Virus record (IMG/VR): IMGVR_UViG_3300027336_000001
Span: 1 to 64,000 of that record
Source of the DNA: a virus
Reading direction: 5' to 3' (one strand)
DNA length: 64,000 nucleotides
Both the position numbers and the translations under genes were made by a program. The notes beneath the pieces are model-generated. The model saw nothing but the letters and a program-made list of their open reading frames with translations, ran no database searches and was not told the DNA's origin. Shown here in pieces: positions 5,985 through 50,211 of the stretch. The first letter of the stretch is position 1. Every line of letters starts with the position of its first letter.

Positions 5985-7674
5985 AGATGATGATGTAAAA
6001 GTAGTCAGTAAAGTAAGACCAAGAGAAAAGGTAAAGACACAGCCTGCAAAAAAGCTAACACCTAATGAGATGAAATCAAGAGTAAAGGTTGCGATGACAA
6101 CAGGTGGTACTCAATTAGGTGGTGGTGGTAATTTTTACTCACCTGAACTTTCAACAGACTTTTTGGAATTACCACAATCTCAAGATGAACAGAGAAACTA
6201 CTTTAGATTCTTTTATCGTACAGATCCATTTGTTGGTCAAGCGATTGATTTACATACCGAATTACCTTTATCTAAAATTAGATTAGGTATGCCAAAAGCT
6301 AAAGACAGTGAGTTAGCTAGAAAAGCATTATCCTTTTGTGAGAAATGGGCAAAGAAAGTAGGTTTACTACACAGACTTATTGAAATTGTGCATGAATATA
6401 ATTTACTTGGTGAAGTGTTTGTATTCTGTGAAGATAACAATCCAGATATGCCTAAAGAAGTTACACATAAAAAAAAGATTTCTTTAAGGGAAGGTACAGC
6501 AGATCAGATTGAAGAACTTTGGGAAGAATATGAAGATAGTAATGAGAGGGCATATGAGTGGATGAAAAAGAATTATAAGGGATGGACAGCTATTCGTATT
6601 TTGCCACCTGAACAAGTACATATGGAGAGTTTTCCATTTACAGATCAAAAGATGATTCAATTAATACCTGATAGCAAGACAAAAGATGTAGTAGAGAGAG
6701 CAGGTATGGATGATCCTGAAGCATTAAGAATAGCTAGATCAATGCCACCTGATGTAGTAGATGCAATTAAAGAAGGTAGGAATATACCATTAAATACAGA
6801 TCCAAATCTAGGTAGCTTTGTGTTTTATATGGCAAGAAAGAAATCACAATATGAACCTCGTGGACATAGTGTATTAGAAAGATGTTTAAGAATTTTAGTG
6901 TTTAGAGATAAATTAAGACAAGCACAGACAAGTATTGCATCAAGACACTTAACACCTATTCGTTTAGTATATGCAGAGGATATGGATGCAATGGATGTAG
7001 AGGCATTAAGAGATCAAGTAGATTTAGCATTACAAGATCCTGATTATTCTATTATTTCAAATTTCCAAGTGAATTGGGAAGAAATGGGTGCAGATAGTCG
7101 CTTGTTAGACCTGTCATCTGAATACGATATGACAGATAGACAGCTATATGCAGGTTTAGGTGTAACAGAAAGTTTATTAAGTGGTGAAGGTGCATATAGT
7201 GGTGATCGTATTCATTTGGAAGTCATTAACACTAGATATATGTTAATGAGAGAAATTCTACAGGAAATGGTAGAAGAAAATATGCTTAAACCTATGTGTG
7301 AAAGAATGGGATTTATAGAAGTAGATGATGATGGTGAAGAAGTGGTGGTTCATCCGTCTTTATCATTTACAAGATTAGGATTAAGAGATAATCAAGACAC
7401 CTTTGATGCTTTGTTTAATCTGTATCAAAAGGGATCATTAGATATAGATGTGATTTTAGAGTTATTGAATATTGACAGTGAAACCACAAAGGCAAAGCTA
7501 AAGAGAGATGCTTTAACATTTAATGACAGTACATTTAATGAAGTGTTGAGAGGTATATATGGTGAGGCAGGTAGAATGTTAGCAGAGAATAGTGATGCGA
7601 TAGAATTGATAGCAAAAAACATAGGATTGAAATATAGTAAGCCAAAGCCTGAAGGTGAAGGTGGTCGTTTTTAA
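5947..7674 (+). CDS. Portal protein
   Basis: The 575-residue protein follows terminase and precedes the protease, scaffold and capsid genes, the usual portal position. The sequence shows NYFRFFYRTDPFVGQAID near the N-terminus, a long helical middle, and GVTESLLSGEGAYSG followed by an amphipathic helix (MREILQEMVEENMLKPM), as in portal stem and wing regions. Portals form the 12-subunit ring at the capsid vertex through which DNA passes. I prefer the second ATG (5947), six bases after GGAAGG; an ATG at 5941 abuts that site. Confidence 0.85.
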   Translation: MAKQSNQQTPTIEDDDVKVVSKVRPREKVKTQPAKKLTPNEMKSRVKVAMTTGGTQLGGGGNFYSPELSTDFLELPQSQDEQRNYFRFFYRTDPFVGQAIDLHTELPLSKIRLGMPKAKDSELARKALSFCEKWAKKVGLLHRLIEIVHEYNLLGEVFVFCEDNNPDMPKEVTHKKKISLREGTADQIEELWEEYEDSNERAYEWMKKNYKGWTAIRILPPEQVHMESFPFTDQKMIQLIPDSKTKDVVERAGMDDPEALRIARSMPPDVVDAIKEGRNIPLNTDPNLGSFVFYMARKKSQYEPRGHSVLERCLRILVFRDKLRQAQTSIASRHLTPIRLVYAEDMDAMDVEALRDQVDLALQDPDYSIISNFQVNWEEMGADSRLLDLSSEYDMTDRQLYAGLGVTESLLSGEGAYSGDRIHLEVINTRYMLMREILQEMVEENMLKPMCERMGFIEVDDDGEEVVVHPSLSFTRLGLRDNQDTFDALFNLYQKGSLDIDVILELLNIDSETTKAKLKRDALTFNDSTFNEVLRGIYGEAGRMLAENSDAIELIAKNIGLKYSKPKPEGEGGRF

Positions 7675-16438: not shown

Positions 16439-17320
16439 ATGACAAATTTAAATGTTGATAATGCAGTAAAACAGAAGATCATTTCTGACTATATTAAGAC
16501 TCCTCAAGGTCGTGCAAAACTTGCATCTTCTATGACACAACCACTTCGTCTTAGAAGAGATTATACCTCTGTTGGTCGTAAGACTTTCTTGGTAGAACAA
16601 TTACCTGATGGTGCTTTGCCAATCTATGACAAAGATCCTGATGTTACAGCATTCGTAGTTGGTGAAGAAGGTGAAAACATTCTTGCTATTACCAAGCCAC
16701 GAAGAGTAATTTTCCCTCTCTTTGAAATTGCATCAAATCCTGAAATTCCTTTAACACAAATTAAGGAAAGACGATTTGACTTGATTGAAAGAGCCCAAGA
16801 CCTTGCTCGTGCCCAAATCCAAGCGGCCGAAGATGAAAGAGTATTTGCAATTCTTGATGCAGTTGCTACTCAAGGTTTTGATGGTGTTGCTGGTCAAACC
16901 AATCCTGATATTCCTGTTATTGCTCCTTTAAATGGTGCAGTACTTGCTGATGCTTATGCACAAATTGAAAAGCATGATCTCCGTGTAGCTCGTGTATTTA
17001 TCAATGCTCGTGACTATGCTGATATCAGAAAGTTTGGTCGTGACATTTTGGATATCGAAAGTCAAGCCGCCCTCTTAAAGACAGGTTTGCAAGCAACTCT
17101 TTGGGGTGCACAAATCATTACAAGTCGTTTGGTTAACCCCGGCACTGTATATGTTTGTTGCGAACCTGAAATGTTTGGTCGTATTCCTGTTCGTACAGAA
17201 TTGACTGTTCTTTCTGCTGATGATCCAAAGGCTCGTACAATTGGTTTCAGTGTGTTCGAGAATTTAGGTATCGGGGCTTATAATCCTCGTGGTTTAACTC
17301 GTTTAACAGTAACTCGTTAA
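16439..17320 (+). CDS. Major capsid protein
   Basis: The 293-residue protein follows scaffold and decoration-like genes and ends the head operon at a strong terminator, as expected for the most abundant virion protein. The sequence has an N-terminal arm, a long amphipathic helix (IERAQDLARAQIQAAEDERV near residues 117-136), and beta-rich segments (RVFINARDYADIRKFGRD; PVRTELTVLSADDP) consistent with an HK97-like fold. Codons are more C- and G-ending than in neighbouring genes (several CGT, CTC, GCC), a sign of high expression. RBS AAAGAAAGG. Confidence 0.8.
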   Translation: MTNLNVDNAVKQKIISDYIKTPQGRAKLASSMTQPLRLRRDYTSVGRKTFLVEQLPDGALPIYDKDPDVTAFVVGEEGENILAITKPRRVIFPLFEIASNPEIPLTQIKERRFDLIERAQDLARAQIQAAEDERVFAILDAVATQGFDGVAGQTNPDIPVIAPLNGAVLADAYAQIEKHDLRVARVFINARDYADIRKFGRDILDIESQAALLKTGLQATLWGAQIITSRLVNPGTVYVCCEPEMFGRIPVRTELTVLSADDPKARTIGFSVFENLGIGAYNPRGLTRLTVTR

Positions 17321-17469: not shown

Positions 17470-18420
17470 ATGAAAAAGATACCATGTCCAATTACATCTG
17501 ATAGGTTATCAGAATTATATACCAACTTATTATTGACAGATGAGCAAGTAGCAGAAGTTCTATGTAAAGAAGGATATGAAGCTACTAAAAAAAGAGTGTG
17601 TAGGTGGAGAGATGATTATAATATTCCAACACTACAAAGATATGAAAGATTTAAACCACCTGCTATTGAAGGTGAATTGAAATCCTTATTAATAGGTTCT
17701 ATGTTAGGTGACGGTAGAATTGCCTTTAGAGGACAAGCATCTCATTATGAAGAAAGACATTCACCTGAACAGCTAGACTATTTAAAATGGAAAGCTGATA
17801 AGTGGGGTGAATGGAGTGCAGGAGATTTAACTATTGCTTATAGTAGAGAATTTGCTAGTCATATCTTTAGAACTAAAGCACATAGTGATTTAAACCAATA
17901 TAGAGATTTATTCTATACAGAGAGAGAAAAGGGATGGAAAGTTGTTAAACCTGAATTGGTGGATATGGTAGATGCTTATGCTTTAGCTATATGGTATTTA
18001 GATGATGGTTGGGCAGGACATTATCCAGCTATTTCTTTTGGTGCTAAAGATGGTAGTAGAGGCAATGCTTATCTGATCTTTGAGAAGTTTAATTTATTAC
18101 CTAAATGGAAATTAAGAAAAGGTGAAACAGGTGAGTTTCATTTTGAGAAAGAAGAAGGTGATAAGTTTATTGAGATCATTAAACCTTATGTACCTGATTG
18201 TATGTCATATAAGATGACATTTGCATATAGAGATGGTAGAAATAACAAAGTAGCACAGAAGATGAAAAAACCTGTATTAGAAGGATTGATAGCGAAAGGA
18301 TATACAAAAGATGAGATGGCAAAAGAATTAGGTGTAGGATATAATACAGTAGATAGGTGGTTAGAGAGATATGGATTAAAAACAATGAATAGTATGAGAA
18401 AAAAACATTTGCAATCTTAA
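17470..18420 (+). CDS. Free-standing LAGLIDADG homing endonuclease
   Basis: The 316-residue protein has two LAGLIDADG helices: LLIGSMLGDGRI (about 75-86) and ALAIWYLDDGW (about 167-177). Both have the acidic residue that coordinates the catalytic metal. It is flanked by helix-turn-helix segments: one near residues 10-50 (DEQVAEVLCKEGYEATKKRV) and one at the C-terminus (KDEMAKELGVGYNTVDRWL). It lies between the capsid terminator and a 282-base structured gap, so it is not inside an intron here. Its likely role is to cut a related phage at this locus and spread by repair. Strong AAGGAGG ribosome binding site. Confidence 0.88.
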   Translation: MKKIPCPITSDRLSELYTNLLLTDEQVAEVLCKEGYEATKKRVCRWRDDYNIPTLQRYERFKPPAIEGELKSLLIGSMLGDGRIAFRGQASHYEERHSPEQLDYLKWKADKWGEWSAGDLTIAYSREFASHIFRTKAHSDLNQYRDLFYTEREKGWKVVKPELVDMVDAYALAIWYLDDGWAGHYPAISFGAKDGSRGNAYLIFEKFNLLPKWKLRKGETGEFHFEKEEGDKFIEIIKPYVPDCMSYKMTFAYRDGRNNKVAQKMKKPVLEGLIAKGYTKDEMAKELGVGYNTVDRWLERYGLKTMNSMRKKHLQS

Positions 18421-35185: not shown

Positions 35186-35982
35186 ATGCAAAAGAGTTCT
35201 ATAAGTTATTTACACCTTTAAAATCTGAACACACAGTGCCTTATTCTCTTAAAGCATATGCAGATGGTTTAGCAGAATATCATGGTGTTAATATCTCATA
35301 TATAGATGAAGAAAGTATTTATAAAGAACCTATTGAGGATTTAGATGAAAAGAAAGCAGTGGTCTTATTTTCAAGTGGTGTAGATAGCACATGGTCTTTA
35401 TTAGAACATATTAAATTAGGATATGAAGTTTATCCTGTGTTTATAAAGATGCTTAATCCAGCTATCTCATCTAAAGAATTAAAGGCAGTGAATGTTTTAA
35501 AAGAAAAGCTAAATCTCAATTTGACAGTGATTGATCATCCAAGTGAGTTAAGGCTACTACATAAAGATCAATATCTGTCAGATAAGATAGATAAAGAAAG
35601 TGTAGTGAAAAATCAATATGCTTTATTGTTATTGGTAGATTTAATAAGAGAGCATAAGATAGGTACAGTGATTTGTATTAATGATCATATAGATGATGGC
35701 AGTATAACAATGTATTCAGATACACCTAAAGCATATCATTTATTTGAAGATGTTTTAAGAAAAGAAGTAGGTGCTTTAAAGTTTAGTCATATAACAGTAC
35801 CTAGAAAAGAGAAAGTGAAAGTTTTATTAGAAAAGGGATTATTTGAATACACAGCATCTTGTTATATGAGAGAGATGTTTTTTAAAGCACATTATAATAA
35901 GCAAAAGCCACCATATAAGAATATGTGTGGAGTTTGTGTTAAATGTAAATGGAATTTACAAATCTTTAAAGAATTACAATAG
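35182..35982 (+). CDS. QueC-like PP-loop ATPase (7-cyano-7-deazaguanine synthase-like)
   Basis: The 266-residue protein has a PP-loop SSGVDSTWSLL (about 59-69), which binds ATP for adenylation, and a C-terminal zinc motif SC followed by CGVCVKC (about 248-254), as in QueC. QueC converts 7-carboxy-7-deazaguanine to preQ0, used for queuosine in tRNA and for 7-deazaguanine DNA modification in some phages. QueD, QueE and a DpdA transferase are not in this window, so the product is uncertain, and other PP-loop enzymes with similar zinc sites exist. It overlaps the dioxygenase gene by four bases. Confidence 0.7.
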   Translation: MNAKEFYKLFTPLKSEHTVPYSLKAYADGLAEYHGVNISYIDEESIYKEPIEDLDEKKAVVLFSSGVDSTWSLLEHIKLGYEVYPVFIKMLNPAISSKELKAVNVLKEKLNLNLTVIDHPSELRLLHKDQYLSDKIDKESVVKNQYALLLLVDLIREHKIGTVICINDHIDDGSITMYSDTPKAYHLFEDVLRKEVGALKFSHITVPRKEKVKVLLEKGLFEYTASCYMREMFFKAHYNKQKPPYKNMCGVCVKCKWNLQIFKELQ

Positions 35983-36465
35983 TCCAGCTTTTTCAGCTAG
36001 ATCTTTGTCAGCAGTGGATTGAGTTTTGCCACCTGATAAGAAACTATAAACACGAGCAATAGACCATTGCTGTTGAGTAGCACCCGGTCTATGTCCTGTT
36101 GCCCATGCCGCCGCACCTCTTGCATAAACTTCACTTAAAATAGATTTAGATACACCTGATACTTTAGATGATGCTTCAATGAAAGCATCTTTGCCTTGAC
36201 CTTCAATTTTTTCTCTGATCTTTTTAGCTATGTCTGTTTTAGAGTATTGGCTTTTGGAAGTGGATTCACCTTTATCTGATTTGAAAGGTTTAAACTTTTT
36301 CTTTGGATCAGTTTCATTTTTTCTTTTGTCGATTTCATTTACTCTTTTTTTTCTATCTTTACCTTTAAGACCTGACAAGTATTTTTTAGGTAAGCCTTTG
36401 TCTTTGTCTTTGCTTTCTAAATAAATACTAGCAATTCTAATTGCCATGAGTTCTCTGTTGTCCAT
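35974..36465 (-). CDS. DUF5824-like protein with N-terminal RIASIYL tag
   Basis: The 163-residue protein opens with AIRIASIYLES, the recurrent tag of this phage, then PKKYLSGLKG and basic lysine-rich sequence. Its C-terminus (ARGAAAWATGHRPGATQQQ, then ARVYSFLSGGK) matches a segment common in uncharacterised phage proteins of the DUF5824 type. Probable virion or DNA-associated protein; role unknown. AAAGG precedes the ATG. Confidence 0.65.
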   Translation of the reverse strand: MDNRELMAIRIASIYLESKDKDKGLPKKYLSGLKGKDRKKRVNEIDKRKNETDPKKKFKPFKSDKGESTSKSQYSKTDIAKKIREKIEGQGKDAFIEASSKVSGVSKSILSEVYARGAAAWATGHRPGATQQQWSIARVYSFLSGGKTQSTADKDLAEKAGLL

Positions 36466-41186: not shown

Positions 41187-42248
41187 ATGGCAGTCAAAGT
41201 TATTCTAGGTTTACAAAATGGTGATGAAGGTAAAGGCAGGATTGTAGATGATCTGTGCTTTAAAGCAGATAAACCTGTTGTTGTTCGTTTTCAAGGTGGT
41301 GCAAATGCAGGACATACTATTTATGATGAAAAAGGTAATAAGTCTGTAGTGCATCTATTACCTAGTGGTGTTCTAAATCCAAATGCTATTAATGTTATTA
41401 CAAGAGCAACAGTGGTAGATCCTATTCAGCTTGTAGAAGAGATCAAACAATTTAATGTTCAGAAAGGATCTCTTATTATTTCGCCTTATTGTCCTGTAGT
41501 CATGTCATGGCATATTGCAGAGGATAAAGCCAAATACCAATCGAAGTTAGGTACGACTGCAAAAGGTATTGGTCCCGCTTTAAGAGATTTTTATGCAAGA
41601 GATGCCATGAATATTAATGCTTGGCTTCAATCTTTTGATTACACAGAAGATGCAGTTCTTTTAAAAGATTATATAGGTGATGCAGAAAAGTTTCTACAAG
41701 ACCATTTATCTACAATGGATCTTTTATTAGAAGGCTGTCAAGGTTATCGACTAGATGTATGGGGTGAAGAATATCCCAATGTTACTTCATCATGCACAAC
41801 CATTGGTGCAGTCTTTTATTCTACTCGTTTAAGTCATAAACAAATAGATGAAGTAATAGGTGTAGCTAAAATCTATGAAACCAAAGTAGGTACAGGTGAG
41901 TTTGAAGAACTAGATGAAGAGTTATCGGAGAAATATAGATCTGTAGGTAAAGAATATGGAGCAACAACAGGTAGACCTAGAAAGATAGGTTGGTTGGATT
42001 TAGATTTATTAAAAGAGGCAATACAAGTAAATGGTGTAGATACACTTATTATTACAAAGACAGATATACCTGTGCAGGTAGGTGTTTTAAAGATTAGAAC
42101 AGCAGAAGATTTTTGGGAAATTAAAGAATTGTGGAATGGTAGTGTAGAACCATTAGTAAGTTTATTAAAAAGGATTCAAAATTACACAGGTGTTAAGAAG
42201 ATAGGATATACTTATGGTGAAAATCGTGGATGTATTGCAATCCTTTAA
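41187..42248 (+). CDS. Short adenylosuccinate synthetase (PurA/PurZ family)
   Basis: The 353-residue protein begins with ILGLQNGDEGKGRIVD, containing the family loop; the catalytic Asp of PurA is retained, unlike PurZ enzymes in which it is replaced. It also has GGANAGHT (about 38-45, catalytic His), LLEGCQGYRLDV (about 185-196), and YGATTGRPRKIGWLD (about 258-272). It is about 75-80 residues shorter than bacterial PurA and similar to archaeal/phage short forms. PurA makes adenylosuccinate from IMP; PurZ makes the precursor of 2-aminoadenine. Retained Asp argues for PurA or an Asp-type PurZ-like enzyme. RBS AAAGGTTAAAAAG. Confidence 0.8.
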   Translation: MAVKVILGLQNGDEGKGRIVDDLCFKADKPVVVRFQGGANAGHTIYDEKGNKSVVHLLPSGVLNPNAINVITRATVVDPIQLVEEIKQFNVQKGSLIISPYCPVVMSWHIAEDKAKYQSKLGTTAKGIGPALRDFYARDAMNINAWLQSFDYTEDAVLLKDYIGDAEKFLQDHLSTMDLLLEGCQGYRLDVWGEEYPNVTSSCTTIGAVFYSTRLSHKQIDEVIGVAKIYETKVGTGEFEELDEELSEKYRSVGKEYGATTGRPRKIGWLDLDLLKEAIQVNGVDTLIITKTDIPVQVGVLKIRTAEDFWEIKELWNGSVEPLVSLLKRIQNYTGVKKIGYTYGENRGCIAIL

Positions 42249-44315: not shown

Positions 44316-45668
44316 TTATAAAAAGTTTCGTGGAGAGAGGACACCACGACCAACATGGGGACCAAAAGCTGATCTGATACCAACACCATATTTAGGTTGT
44401 TGTAAACCACGAATGATTTTGGTAGTTCTAGCTTTCATTTCAGTAGCAGTTTGCCATTGACTTTCAGCGGCGGATCTTAAACCTTCATATTTAGAGGATT
44501 TATCAATATTTAATGAAATGCCACCTATGGAATAATCAAATTCATCTACAATCCAATTCGCTTGTAATGCCATCGCCGCAAACTGAATAGCACCTTGAAA
44601 GATTGCAGTTCGCCATGCAGGTTTCTGATTACAAAGAACATCAATATTTTTATATGCACCATCAGTTTCAGGTGGCATCATATTCCACCAATCTAATGCT
44701 CTTTCAATATATTCTAATAACTCTACATCTTCCCATACTTGACCAAATACTCTATTATATTGACCAACATTAGCTTCAGCTTCAGGTGGTCTAAAATGAT
44801 AAAATTTATCAGGACAGTTATGGACAAGTATTTTACTATCAAATAAAAAGAGATTGTGATTATTTTCTACTGTGAGATCATACATATGCTCTCTATTATC
44901 TATTTGAGAGATAGCTAATATCTTAACTTTGCCTTGTAGAGAATAAACAGAATCACCTTCTTTTAAATCTTCTACTTCAACAGCATAATCAATATCTGTA
45001 TATACTCTATGACCACCTGTGAGAATCATACTACCTAATTCAGTTTCAATAGAATAGATAGATTCCCATGATGTTTCATTTTTATGTGCTTTCTCAATCT
45101 TTTGCCAAGACAAATTGCCTTCTTTATCCATAGATTGGATTTTCAAAGTACCTTCTTTAAAAGATTCTTTGATAATACTATCATTTTCTTTATCTATTAG
45201 ATCATAAAGTTCTTCTAAAGTAATAATTACTTTTTCACCATTGACATCTAATAAGATTTTCTCTTCACCACCAATACACTGATCACGGAGTAGCAATCTT
45301 AGTTTATCTACCATTATTCTTTCATTAGTAGAAAATGAATTTCCTACTATTGTAGTTTCACTGACAACACCAAATTCTTGAATGACAGTTTGTTCAGGAC
45401 TATTAACAAGTTCTTTAATCGTCCATTTTATTCTATATGTACCATAAGATGCAGTAGCTGGTATTCTAAGAGAGGCATAGTATTCACCAACAGCTGGATT
45501 TTCAGGTATGCGAGCAGGATCACCAATAAGAACATCAACCATATTATCTACAAAAAAGATAGCATAAGTAATAGACGAGGCATTGGCAACATTTCCACTA
45601 GCATTAGTTAAGAATATATCAAGATCACCACGAGTAAGTGTTTGACTTCGTTTAAATGCGACACTCAT
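44316..45668 (-). CDS. Virion structural protein interrupted by a mini-intein
   Basis: The 450-residue precursor has an N-terminal Ig-like beta domain (about 1-105), a short helix (MVDKLRLLLRDQ), an intein (residues 131-284) and a C-terminal domain. Removing the intein joins LRDQ to CPDKFYHFRPPE, giving a 296-residue protein in which the helix continues naturally. The N-terminal domain resembles the proteins at 49864 and 51735. Host protein function is unassigned; context and domain type suggest a virion (neck, tail or fibre-associated) component. ATG 45668 follows ACAAGGTACTG. Confidence 0.75.
   Translation of the reverse strand: MSVAFKRSQTLTRGDLDIFLTNASGNVANASSITYAIFFVDNMVDVLIGDPARIPENPAVGEYYASLRIPATASYGTYRIKWTIKELVNSPEQTVIQEFGVVSETTIVGNSFSTNERIMVDKLRLLLRDQCIGGEEKILLDVNGEKVIITLEELYDLIDKENDSIIKESFKEGTLKIQSMDKEGNLSWQKIEKAHKNETSWESIYSIETELGSMILTGGHRVYTDIDYAVEVEDLKEGDSVYSLQGKVKILAISQIDNREHMYDLTVENNHNLFLFDSKILVHNCPDKFYHFRPPEAEANVGQYNRVFGQVWEDVELLEYIERALDWWNMMPPETDGAYKNIDVLCNQKPAWRTAIFQGAIQFAAMALQANWIVDEFDYSIGGISLNIDKSSKYEGLRSAAESQWQTATEMKARTTKIIRGLQQPKYGVGIRSAFGPHVGRGVLSPRNFL
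44817..45278 (-). mobile_element. Mini-intein (154 residues)
   Basis: Residue 131 is Cys (CIGGEEKILLDVNG, block A). Block B is SMILTGGHRVYT, with the T-x-x-H motif. Block F is EHMYDLTVENNHNLFL and block G is ILVHN followed by Cys285 as the +1 residue, with the penultimate His and final Asn needed for cyclisation. All splicing residues are present, so it should splice. It is too short for a LAGLIDADG or HNH endonuclease. The 70 residues between block A and B are a splicing-domain insert without recognised endonuclease motifs. Confidence 0.88.
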
Positions 45669-47529: not shown

Positions 47530-47847
47530 TTATTTAAACCAATCGGAAACTAATTTTTTATCAAAACCAGCTTTATATAAAGCATGACGAATTTGTTTTT
47601 TAATTTCTTCAGGTGGTTCACCATTAGCAGGATTAGAAAAACCATTTTGAGCAAAAGTCAAAATAGGATCTTTACGATTTTTCTCAAAGATAGCATCATT
47701 GATTAATTGTAAACGATATTGTCTTTTAATATCATCATCGTAACCTGCTAAAGCCATAGCAAGTTCATCCATACTAAATCGTTTCTTATAAAATGTAGTA
47801 GCTTTTAAATATTGTGATGCTACTCTAAGAGCAGATGGTCTATTCAT
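47530..47847 (-). CDS. Small protein with N-terminal RVASQYL tag
   Basis: The 105-residue protein begins MNRPSALRVASQYLKATTFY, the recurrent tag, followed by charged helical sequence. It overlaps the upstream thermonuclease stop (ATGA), so they are co-translated. Probable virion protein or virion-associated factor; inferred from tag only. Confidence 0.6.
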   Translation of the reverse strand: MNRPSALRVASQYLKATTFYKKRFSMDELAMALAGYDDDIKRQYRLQLINDAIFEKNRKDPILTFAQNGFSNPANGEPPEEIKKQIRHALYKAGFDKKLVSDWFK

Positions 47848-48359: not shown

Positions 48360-49085
48360 ATGAGAAATTTAAGTAAAAAGATTGCATCTGTATATATGAT
48401 GCAAAAACAAGCAGGCAGTGGATCACTACTTGCATTCCCAAGTGTTATGTTCAATTTGAAAGAATTATCTAACCAAGCAAAAGATCAAGTATCTGATGCG
48501 ATTGTAGATGGTCTTGCAAATATTTTTCATGGCATCATTCAAGCAAGTGGTGGTGAGTATGAAGTTAAAGTTTTAAAACAAGAAACACTTGAAGGTGATA
48601 TTCCGATGAGAAATCAAGGTAAGTATTACAGTGATACAGGTTTTGAAGCACATGAGATTTATGGTGCAAATGGAAAAAAATTATCTTTATCTATTCAAGT
48701 AGAACTTGAATTTGTAGCTGAAGAATTGGCAAAACATCTCAATTCAGAAGTACATCAATTTTTTGCACATAAGATTCTTACTAAAGAGGTATTAAAAGAT
48801 CTTAAAGCAGGATCATATTTAAATGCAGTAGCAATGTTTGTAAAGCAAGAAATTAAAAGTTCAAACATTCGCTATGCTACAGATCATGTAGAAGAGTTTT
48901 TAAGTTGGATTGAAAATCTTGATTTAGATTTTCTTGGCATGAATAGTATGGAAGGTAGTCAATATTTAGAGTACTCTAGTGTTGCAGTAAAAGATGTGAG
49001 TTGGAGTTTAAATACTATGGACTTTTTGGTAGCTATGGAAGTAGGTTTTATACTTGATGGTAATCAGTATTTGAATGATTATTAG
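48360..49085 (+). CDS. Unidentified virion-like protein, duplicate A
   Basis: The 241-residue protein begins LSKKIASVYMMQKQAG, with the recurrent KIASxY tag. It is followed by a helical domain and a C-terminal segment (AVKDVSWSLNTMDFLVAMEV) shared with the next gene. It and the gene at 49211 are nearly identical in several blocks and differ in insertions. No family recognised. RBS AAAGG. Confidence 0.65.
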   Translation: MRNLSKKIASVYMMQKQAGSGSLLAFPSVMFNLKELSNQAKDQVSDAIVDGLANIFHGIIQASGGEYEVKVLKQETLEGDIPMRNQGKYYSDTGFEAHEIYGANGKKLSLSIQVELEFVAEELAKHLNSEVHQFFAHKILTKEVLKDLKAGSYLNAVAMFVKQEIKSSNIRYATDHVEEFLSWIENLDLDFLGMNSMEGSQYLEYSSVAVKDVSWSLNTMDFLVAMEVGFILDGNQYLNDY

Positions 49086-49210: not shown

Positions 49211-49867
49211 ATGAAATATTTAAGTAAAAAAATTGCATCTATCTATATGCAAAAGCAAGCAGGTAATGGATCACTACTTGCATTCCCAAGTGTTATGTTC
49301 AATTTGAAAGAATTATCTAACCAAGCAAAAGATCAAGTATCTGGTGCGATTGTAGATGGTCTTACAAATGTTTTTCATGGCATCATTCAATCAGCTGATG
49401 GTGAGTATCAAGTTAAAGTTTTAAAACAAGAAGAAGATATTTATTCACATGAGATACGAGTATCTTTATCTATTCAAGTGGCACTTGAATCTGTAGCTAA
49501 AGTATTAGCAGATCATCTCAATTCAGAAGAACCTCAATTTTTTGCACATAAGATTCTTGCTAAAGAGGTATTAAAAGATCTTAAAGCAGGATCATATTTA
49601 AATGCAGTAGCAATGTTTGTAAAGCAAGGAATTAAAAGTTCAAACATTCACTATGATGAAAAGGTTGTTGAAGAGTTTTTAATGAAAGATGCGGGTATTT
49701 CTTTAGATTTTCTTGTTGGTATTGATACTGATGATGTTGATGTTCATCAATATTTAGATTCTTATAGTATTGCAGTAAAAGATGTGAGTTGGAGTTTAAA
49801 CACTATGGATTTTTTGGTAAATATGGAAGTAATTTATGTAATTGATCCAGATCCAAATGATTATTAG
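49211..49867 (+). CDS. Unidentified virion-like protein, duplicate B
   Basis: The 218-residue paralogue of the gene at 48360: LSKKIASIYMQKQAGNGS, then the same LLAFPSVMFNLKELSNQAKD block; shorter in the region around residues 75-95. A DNA stretch of about 75 bases in each copy is nearly base-identical (about 48420-48494 and 49268-49342), indicating recent tandem duplication. A 125-base intergenic gap separates the copies. RBS weak (AGTGAAG). Confidence 0.65.
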   Translation: MKYLSKKIASIYMQKQAGNGSLLAFPSVMFNLKELSNQAKDQVSGAIVDGLTNVFHGIIQSADGEYQVKVLKQEEDIYSHEIRVSLSIQVALESVAKVLADHLNSEEPQFFAHKILAKEVLKDLKAGSYLNAVAMFVKQGIKSSNIHYDEKVVEEFLMKDAGISLDFLVGIDTDDVDVHQYLDSYSIAVKDVSWSLNTMDFLVNMEVIYVIDPDPNDY

Positions 49868-50166
49868 CCTACAATAGCAAATTCCTGTCTTGCTATTTCT
49901 ATTGGTGCAGTAGAATCTCTTTGGATAGACCATTCTACATAATATCCACCTCTTAAAAATCCTGTATTCAATTTTTCACCTACAAAGTAATATCCTGTGC
50001 TTTCTTTAATAGGTGTTCTTTCTGCCATACCTACTCTATTTTTCTTCATGTCATAAAAAGCATAAGTAATTCGATATGGATCAAATAACCTATCTCTATC
50101 ATCTCTGATATATATTCTTAAATCAAATTTTGTAGGTGTATCGCTTTGTTTAAATATGACTGCCAT
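49864..50166 (-). CDS. Ig-like beta protein, paralogue of the intein-bearing gene's N-terminus
   Basis: The 100-residue protein aligns in pattern with residues 1-102 of the product at 44316: both begin M-[AS]-V-x-F-K-x-S-x-T and have R-I/S-I-T-Y-A-F, G-[EY]-Y, and W-[ST]-I near the end. It is probably a virion domain protein. AGAGAG precedes ATG 50166; the frame upstream to 50205 lacks a site. Function unassigned. Confidence 0.6.
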   Translation of the reverse strand: MAVIFKQSDTPTKFDLRIYIRDDRDRLFDPYRITYAFYDMKKNRVGMAERTPIKESTGYYFVGEKLNTGFLRGGYYVEWSIQRDSTAPIEIARQEFAIVG

Positions 50167-50211
50167 TATATGCTCTCTTTTATTGATTCTATATATGCAG
50201 ATCAAAATAAA

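What the first reader, a model, noticed from the sequence alone, without database searches (positions are those of the whole stretch)
44817..45278. Complete mini-intein in a phage structural gene
Residues 131-284 of the product at 44316-45668 carry the splicing motifs A (Cys1), B (T-x-x-H), F and G (penultimate His, final Asn, +1 Cys), and the flanking exteins join in a natural-looking helix (LRDQ to CPDK). It has no endonuclease, so it cannot home by itself now. Inteins in phage structural proteins are much rarer than in terminase or DNA metabolism genes, and the extein resembles two intein-free paralogues.
Basis: partly seen in the sequence, partly recalled or inferred. Interest (0 to 1): 0.75.

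Follow-up and report, generated by a model that had tools for sequence, protein, structure and literature searches.

The report
Re-fused split intein in phage connector
A phage gene for a probable head-tail connector protein carries a complete self-splicing insert (intein); relatives of the same gene carry that insert broken in two around a DNA-cutting gene, so the one-piece insert here looks like a broken gene that lost the cutter and healed, a route opposite to the one usually assumed.

Summary
Residues 131-284 of the minus-strand ORF 44316-45668 match the curated intein N- and C-terminal models above cut-off and keep every class 1 splicing residue. About 60 distinct intein-free relatives share the gene; the closest (93% identical) has a clean empty site with Asn, not Cys, at +1. 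It is the only intein found in the 195.7-kb record. In nine, a free-standing TnsA-like endonuclease gene lies between the halves; in one, only its deletion remnant. A second site repeats this with a Vsr-like endonuclease, and there one contiguous allele is joined exactly where a deletion between AGGAG repeats removes the endonuclease gene, leaving the C-half's ribosome-binding site and start codons in frame. The window's intein is best read as a former split intein that lost its endonuclease gene and re-fused. For the window this is inferred from the tree and the parallel case; its own junction has diverged too far. The extein is a probable head-tail connector. Splicing is untested.

The parts
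45279..45668 (-). N-extein, residues 1-130 (N-terminal beta domain plus first helix of the connector)
   Evidence: aligned to intein-free homologues; E1 profile E 4e-59
44817..45278 (-). contiguous mini-intein, residues 131-284, 154 aa
   Evidence: TIGR01445, TIGR01443, PF14890
45183..45278 (-). IntN-equivalent, residues 131-162, block A with Cys131
   Evidence: aligns with the separate IntN ends of the split relatives
44817..45182 (-). IntC-equivalent, residues 163-284
   Evidence: aligns with the separate IntC starts of the split relatives; about 52% identical to L033
45009..45020 (-). block B TGGH, residues 217-220
   Evidence: invariant T and H in A1
44817..44822 (-). His283-Asn284 at the C-terminal splice junction
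   Evidence: TIGR01443 match to residue 285
44814..44816 (-). +1 Cys285; Asn in nearly all empty alleles
44316..44816 (-). C-extein, residues 285-450, and stop codon
   Evidence: E2 and E3 profiles E 1e-47 and 2e-37; helical domain in the model

Best explanation
The window encodes a class 1, cis-splicing mini-intein in a probable phage head-tail connector protein. Inferred from conserved residues: Cys131 makes the N-S acyl shift, Cys285 takes over the N-extein, Asn284 cyclises, and a 296-aa connector plus a free 154-aa intein result. Historically it is a former split intein. The ancestor at this site had three adjacent ORFs: N-extein-IntN, a free-standing TnsA-like homing endonuclease, and IntC-C-extein. 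The endonuclease gene was deleted and the two halves fused in frame, so trans-splicing became cis-splicing and the element lost its own mobility. Shown: the intein by profile, the empty sites, the split and remnant alleles at the same site, and at site b of the same gene a base-level footprint of exactly such a fusion. Inferred: the direction for the window itself, the homing function of the TnsA-like protein, and splicing activity.
For: Intein identity. Empty alleles. Site a: ten other distinct occupied alleles are all split at the same place; nine have a TnsA-like endonuclease gene between the halves and one (L054/L055) a 33-codon remnant formed by deletion at a GAAAAG repeat. The five site-a endonucleases compared are homologous (31-40% between groups, E below 1e-30) and occur in both clades flanking the window on the intein tree. 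Window grouped with the L033/L058/L055 split clade: 95/97 on IntC with site b as outgroup, 100/99 on IntN+IntC unrooted. Site b parallel: split L113 reads ..AAAGAGGAG|GGTGAGGAGTAATG.. and ..CAGCAAAGGAG|CGTATGATGG..; contiguous L058 reads ..AAAGAGGAG|CGTATGATGG.., i.e. the endonuclease gene is deleted between AGGAG repeats and the SD and start codons of IntC are kept inside the fused ORF. No cognate endonuclease elsewhere in the window's record, with positive controls.
Against: The window's own junction (IDKEN-DSIIKESF) is too diverged to show a deletion footprint. The AU test does not reject trees with the window outside all split site-a inteins (p 0.18 to 0.37). Endonuclease-based scans favour endonuclease-bearing alleles, so the true share of contiguous alleles is unknown. 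No splicing data.
Confidence: 0.74

Rival explanations
1. Primitively contiguous mini-intein: the window keeps the ancestral one-piece state, and the split alleles arose later when endonuclease genes invaded and broke the intein.
For: Literature holds that split inteins come from contiguous ones (PMC12707363); AU tests do not reject the window as outgroup to all split site-a inteins; solved contiguous inteins have a similar linker length in this region.
Against: Homologous endonuclease genes at the same split point occur on both sides of the window on the best tree; the outgroup site-b inteins are nearly all split at the equivalent place; site b shows the opposite direction at base level.
Confidence: 0.2
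2. The intein is inactive or only cleaves, and the connector works unspliced or in two pieces.
For: No activity data; a mobile-element remnant with no endonuclease may decay.
Against: All catalytic residues kept; the ORF is intact; the insertion lies in one of the most conserved stretches of the extein, where an unspliced 154-aa insert is unlikely to be tolerated (inference).
Confidence: 0.05
3. Assembly artefact or a non-intein Hint domain (for example a bacterial intein-like domain).
For: The record is a metagenome contig and no second record with this exact allele was found.
Against: Clean ORF, exact match to the empty site, +1 Cys, intein-specific N- and C-terminal models above cut-off, and homologous inteins at the same base position in independent samples.
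Confidence: 0.01

Closest known systems
'Fractured genes' with split inteins and a free-standing Vsr-like homing endonuclease (Dassa et al. 2009, cited in PMC7090010 and PMC6801210; the paper itself is not held, so its content is from memory)
   Same: Relatives of the window have the same layout: IntN ORF, endonuclease ORF, IntC ORF; site-b endonucleases are Vsr/DUF559-like.
   Different: Here the split leaves a short IntN; site a uses a TnsA-like nuclease; the host is a connector-like gene with three intein sites; and the window's allele is contiguous.
[quoted passage not shown] PolB16 OarG, AceL-TerL)
   Same: Split close to the N-terminus with a long IntC (compare PMC10189870).
   Different: IntN is about 32-41 aa in the site-a relatives against 15-25 aa reported (PMC11923092); an endonuclease gene sits between the halves; the window's copy is in one piece.
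Ordinary class 1 mini-inteins (closest solved: DNA polymerase II large-subunit intein, 5bkh)
   Same: Contiguous, no endonuclease, C1 / TxxH / HN / C+1.
   Different: Mini-inteins are normally thought to have lost an embedded nuclease domain from the canonical insertion site (PMC6801210); here the nuclease lost was a separate gene at another position.

Membership tests
Intein, class 1 | N-terminal block A with Cys/Ser at position 1 | tested here: met
   Cys131; TIGR01445 above cut-off
Intein, class 1 | Block B T-x-x-H | tested here: met
   T217-G-G-H220
Intein, class 1 | Blocks F and G ending His-Asn, with a nucleophile at +1 | tested here: met
   H283-N284-C285; TIGR01443 above cut-off
Intein, class 1 | In-frame insertion in a protein whose intein-free form exists | tested here: met
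   L001, 93% identical, and about 60 further distinct empty alleles
Intein, class 1 | Splices | not testable with these tools
   needs expression or mass spectrometry
Split intein / fractured gene | Two halves in separate ORFs | tested here: not met
   one ORF in the window; met in all ten other distinct site-a alleles
Split intein / fractured gene | Free-standing homing endonuclease gene between the halves | tested here: not met
   none in the gene; none related in the 195.7-kb record (controls ring)
Full-length homing intein | Embedded endonuclease domain | tested here: not met
   154 aa only; no endonuclease family matched inside
Phage head-tail connector (extein) | Profile match to a connector family | tested here: inconclusive
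   phrog_17327 matched by 7 of 11 members, best E 8.5e-4; no convincing Pfam or PDB sequence match
Phage head-tail connector (extein) | Connector/adaptor fold | tested here: inconclusive
   model mean pLDDT 75.9, two domains; phage G gp165 E 2e-10; portal-adaptor complex 8gtd only E 0.018
Phage head-tail connector (extein) | Present in virions | not testable with these tools
   uncultivated phage

The most novel reading that the evidence does not exclude
Split and contiguous inteins interconvert in nature, and split inteins can heal. In this one gene, separate homing endonuclease genes sit between the halves of atypically split inteins; deletion between short repeats removes the nuclease gene and sometimes fuses the halves in frame, turning trans-splicing into cis-splicing. 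The window is the site-a instance and L058 the site-b instance with an intact footprint.
Probability: 0.7. Interest if true: 0.72.

Novelty: new variant of a known kind. Interest (0 to 1): 0.62.

Why it matters
Split inteins are usually taken as a product of contiguous ones (PMC12707363). This gene family shows empty, split with nuclease gene, split with nuclease remnant, nuclease fused to the C-half, and contiguous states side by side, so the life cycle can be read from alleles. It also bears on a published puzzle: why embedded nuclease domains always sit at one site of the intein fold, and whether inteins with nucleases elsewhere should exist (PMC6801210). Here a nuclease occupies another position, but by breaking the gene rather than sitting inside the folded protein. 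Practically, it offers cis and trans versions of the same short-IntN intein family, and natural genes whose product must be assembled from three pieces, both of interest for protein ligation tools.

Tried and rejected
The first collection pattern for HN|CPD..YHF dropped one residue and found nothing; corrected. I considered whether the split point is the N35 loop of PMC6801210 (the mirror of the canonical nuclease site); that numbering follows NpuDnaE, and from my own knowledge of that sequence the split here lies upstream of N35, so I dropped the idea. The first AlphaFold run with 11 sequences was poor (pLDDT 61) and was replaced by one with 56. The PDB fold search gave no significant hit, so the connector reading stays provisional. 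A deletion footprint at the window junction was sought and could not be resolved. Small trees left the window's place open; more taxa improved it, but AU tests still allow the alternative. Nucleotide identity to L001 is lower in the N-extein half than in the C-extein half; there is no clear co-conversion tract, and this was not pursued.

Full report
OBSERVATION. The ORF 44316-45668 is on the minus strand and encodes 450 aa without a stop. Residues 131-284 (DNA 44817-45278) are a complete mini-intein: intein N-terminal model 31.6 bits (cut-off 24.5), C-terminal model 31.5 bits (cut-off 15.6), Pfam Intein_splicing 2e-7, closest solved relative an archaeal DNA polymerase II intein. Cys1, T-x-x-H, the block F Asp, His-Asn and +1 Cys are all present. 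It is the only intein found in the 195,689-bp IMG/VR record that holds the window.

EMPTY SITES. An extein-only search of IMG/VR gave 42 loci and a profile search found 221 confirmed relatives, of which 80 were kept. The nearest, L001, has a 296-aa protein 93% identical to the predicted spliced product. Across distinct alleles about 60 have neither site a nor site b filled. At site a the residue after the insertion point is Asn in 70 of 73 distinct empty alleles (once each Ala, Arg, Lys) and never Cys or Ser, while all occupied alleles have Cys or Ser; at site b it is Asp in 61 of 64 empty alleles and Ser or Thr in all occupied ones. So the +1 nucleophile travels with the intein, presumably by co-conversion (inference).

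SPLIT ALLELES AT THE SAME SITE. LR745208 and several IMG/VR contigs carry an intein at exactly this point but in pieces: an N-extein-IntN ORF that stops after about 33 intein residues, a separate endonuclease ORF, and an IntC-C-extein ORF with its own start. In L033 the three ORFs overlap at their ends, start codon over stop codon. In all, 11 distinct alleles have site a filled: nine split with an endonuclease gene, one split with only a remnant, and the window, the only contiguous one. The site-a endonucleases tested match TnsA-like N (PF08722), and the five compared are homologous to each other. Every near-full-length relative of the site-a endonuclease (ten contigs) and every long relative of the site-b endonuclease found in IMG/VR lies in this one gene; shorter, weaker matches do not. 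They look dedicated to it.

SECOND AND THIRD SITES. Site b (DEF|DYSIGG) has 16 complete occupied alleles: 15 split, with a Vsr/DUF559-like endonuclease, and one contiguous (L058 and L059, the same allele). In L241 and L243 the endonuclease is fused in frame to IntC. L060 has a contiguous Ser1 intein at a third site near the C-terminus. In L151 and L239 both sites a and b are split with endonuclease genes, so the protein would have to be assembled from three pieces.

FOOTPRINT OF RE-FUSION. At site b, split L113 ends IntN with ..ATTATAAAAGAGGAG|GGTGAGGAGTAATG.. (stop, then endonuclease start) and starts IntC with ..CCAGCAAAGGAG|CGTATGATGG... Contiguous L058 reads ..ATTATAAAAGAGGAG|CGTATGATGG.., i.e. 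one copy of the AGGAG repeat, the endonuclease gene gone, and the ribosome-binding site and start codons of IntC now read as codons KEERMM within one ORF. At site a, L055 shows the other outcome: the endonuclease gene is cut to 33 codons by a deletion at a GAAAAG repeat, and the halves remain separate. At site b the direction split to contiguous is thus strongly indicated, because the fused ORF carries the translation signals of the former separate gene; the reverse would need an intein that happened to hold a well-placed ribosome-binding site and start codon before the endonuclease gene arrived.

THE WINDOW. On the IntC tree with site b as outgroup the window groups with the split L033/L058/L055 clade (95/97), while the other site-a lineages are split with homologous endonucleases; with IntN added and no outgroup the same grouping has 100/99. 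Parsimony then makes the window's one-piece state derived. Its junction IDKEN-DSIIKESF joins the end of a complete IntN to IntC at about its eighth residue, as a fusing deletion would, but sequence divergence hides any footprint, and AU tests do not exclude the alternative. I put re-fusion at roughly 0.75 to 0.8 for the window.

EXTEIN. The protein has an N-terminal beta domain and a helical C-terminal domain with a beta hairpin (AlphaFold of L001 with 56 sequences, pLDDT 75.9). phrog_17327 'head-tail connector' matches 7 of 11 members weakly; the Tunturi_5 homologue is annotated head-tail connector; the best named fold match is phage G gp165. The PDB fold search was not significant. I treat it as a probable connector or neck protein. 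The ORF at 49864-50205 shares only the N-terminal domain.

MECHANISM. Inferred from conserved residues: standard class 1 cis-splicing. The window's element has no endonuclease in the gene or, as far as a search with one site-a endonuclease shows, elsewhere in the record (controls), so it can now spread only by recombination or with help from another phage's endonuclease.

NOVELTY. Mini-inteins and fractured genes with split inteins are known kinds. What appears new is the natural re-fusion of a split intein, with a base-level example in the same gene, and the range of states at three sites of one phage gene. In the papers that could be searched I found no report of this; the library lacks most subscription journals and does not hold the 2009 fractured-genes paper, so priority is not settled.

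LIMITS. Only 80 of 221 extein relatives could be kept in the widest scan, endonuclease-based scans enrich for endonuclease-bearing alleles, metagenome contigs could not be scanned, and records very near the window's own may have been left out by the tools.

Noticed in passing
window 17470-18420 (+): Free-standing LAGLIDADG endonuclease with a C-terminal HTH (PF03161 E 2.6e-18), next to ORF 16439-17320, which looks like a major capsid gene by position and sequence (my reading, no family search).
   Followed up: no
L058/L059 around 6667-6740 and L113 4733-5777: Site b: deletion of the endonuclease gene between AGGAG repeats, leaving a fossil ribosome-binding site and start codons in the fused intein.
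   Followed up: yes
L151/L235, L239: Both site a and site b split with endonuclease genes: five ORFs, three extein pieces to be joined by two trans-splicing events.
   Followed up: partly
L241 2983-4563, L243 2992-4551: Vsr-like endonuclease fused in frame to IntC while IntN stays separate.
   Followed up: partly
L060 2360-3736: Third insertion site (GPF|..GRG) with a contiguous Ser1/Ser+1 mini-intein; the same gene has a split intein at site a.
   Followed up: partly
L062, L149, L060 (site b): Three empty site-b alleles have Ser instead of Asp at +1, as occupied alleles do; possibly scars of a precisely lost intein.
   Followed up: no
L033 6672-7949; similar ORFs in L047, L039, L062, L049: Another probable endonuclease gene with repeated YG.ENP motifs (DUF7487) just downstream of the connector gene in several alleles, not seen next to the gene in the window.
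   Followed up: no
L250 2432-4623 (Agrobacterium phage Atu_ph07) and L251 2497-4704 (Serratia phage 2050H1): Terminase large subunit genes with related inteins: two ORFs without an endonuclease gene between them in Atu_ph07, one contiguous ORF in 2050H1.
   Followed up: partly
window 48360-49085 and 49211-49867 (+): Tandem, closely similar ORFs; several otherwise different ORFs in the window also carry an N-terminal motif like (K/R)xASxYL (35974-36465, 47530-47847).
   Followed up: no
window 41187-42248 (+): ORF that reads like adenylosuccinate synthetase (PurA/PurZ-like, my reading), which in some phages goes with a modified adenine in the DNA.
   Followed up: no
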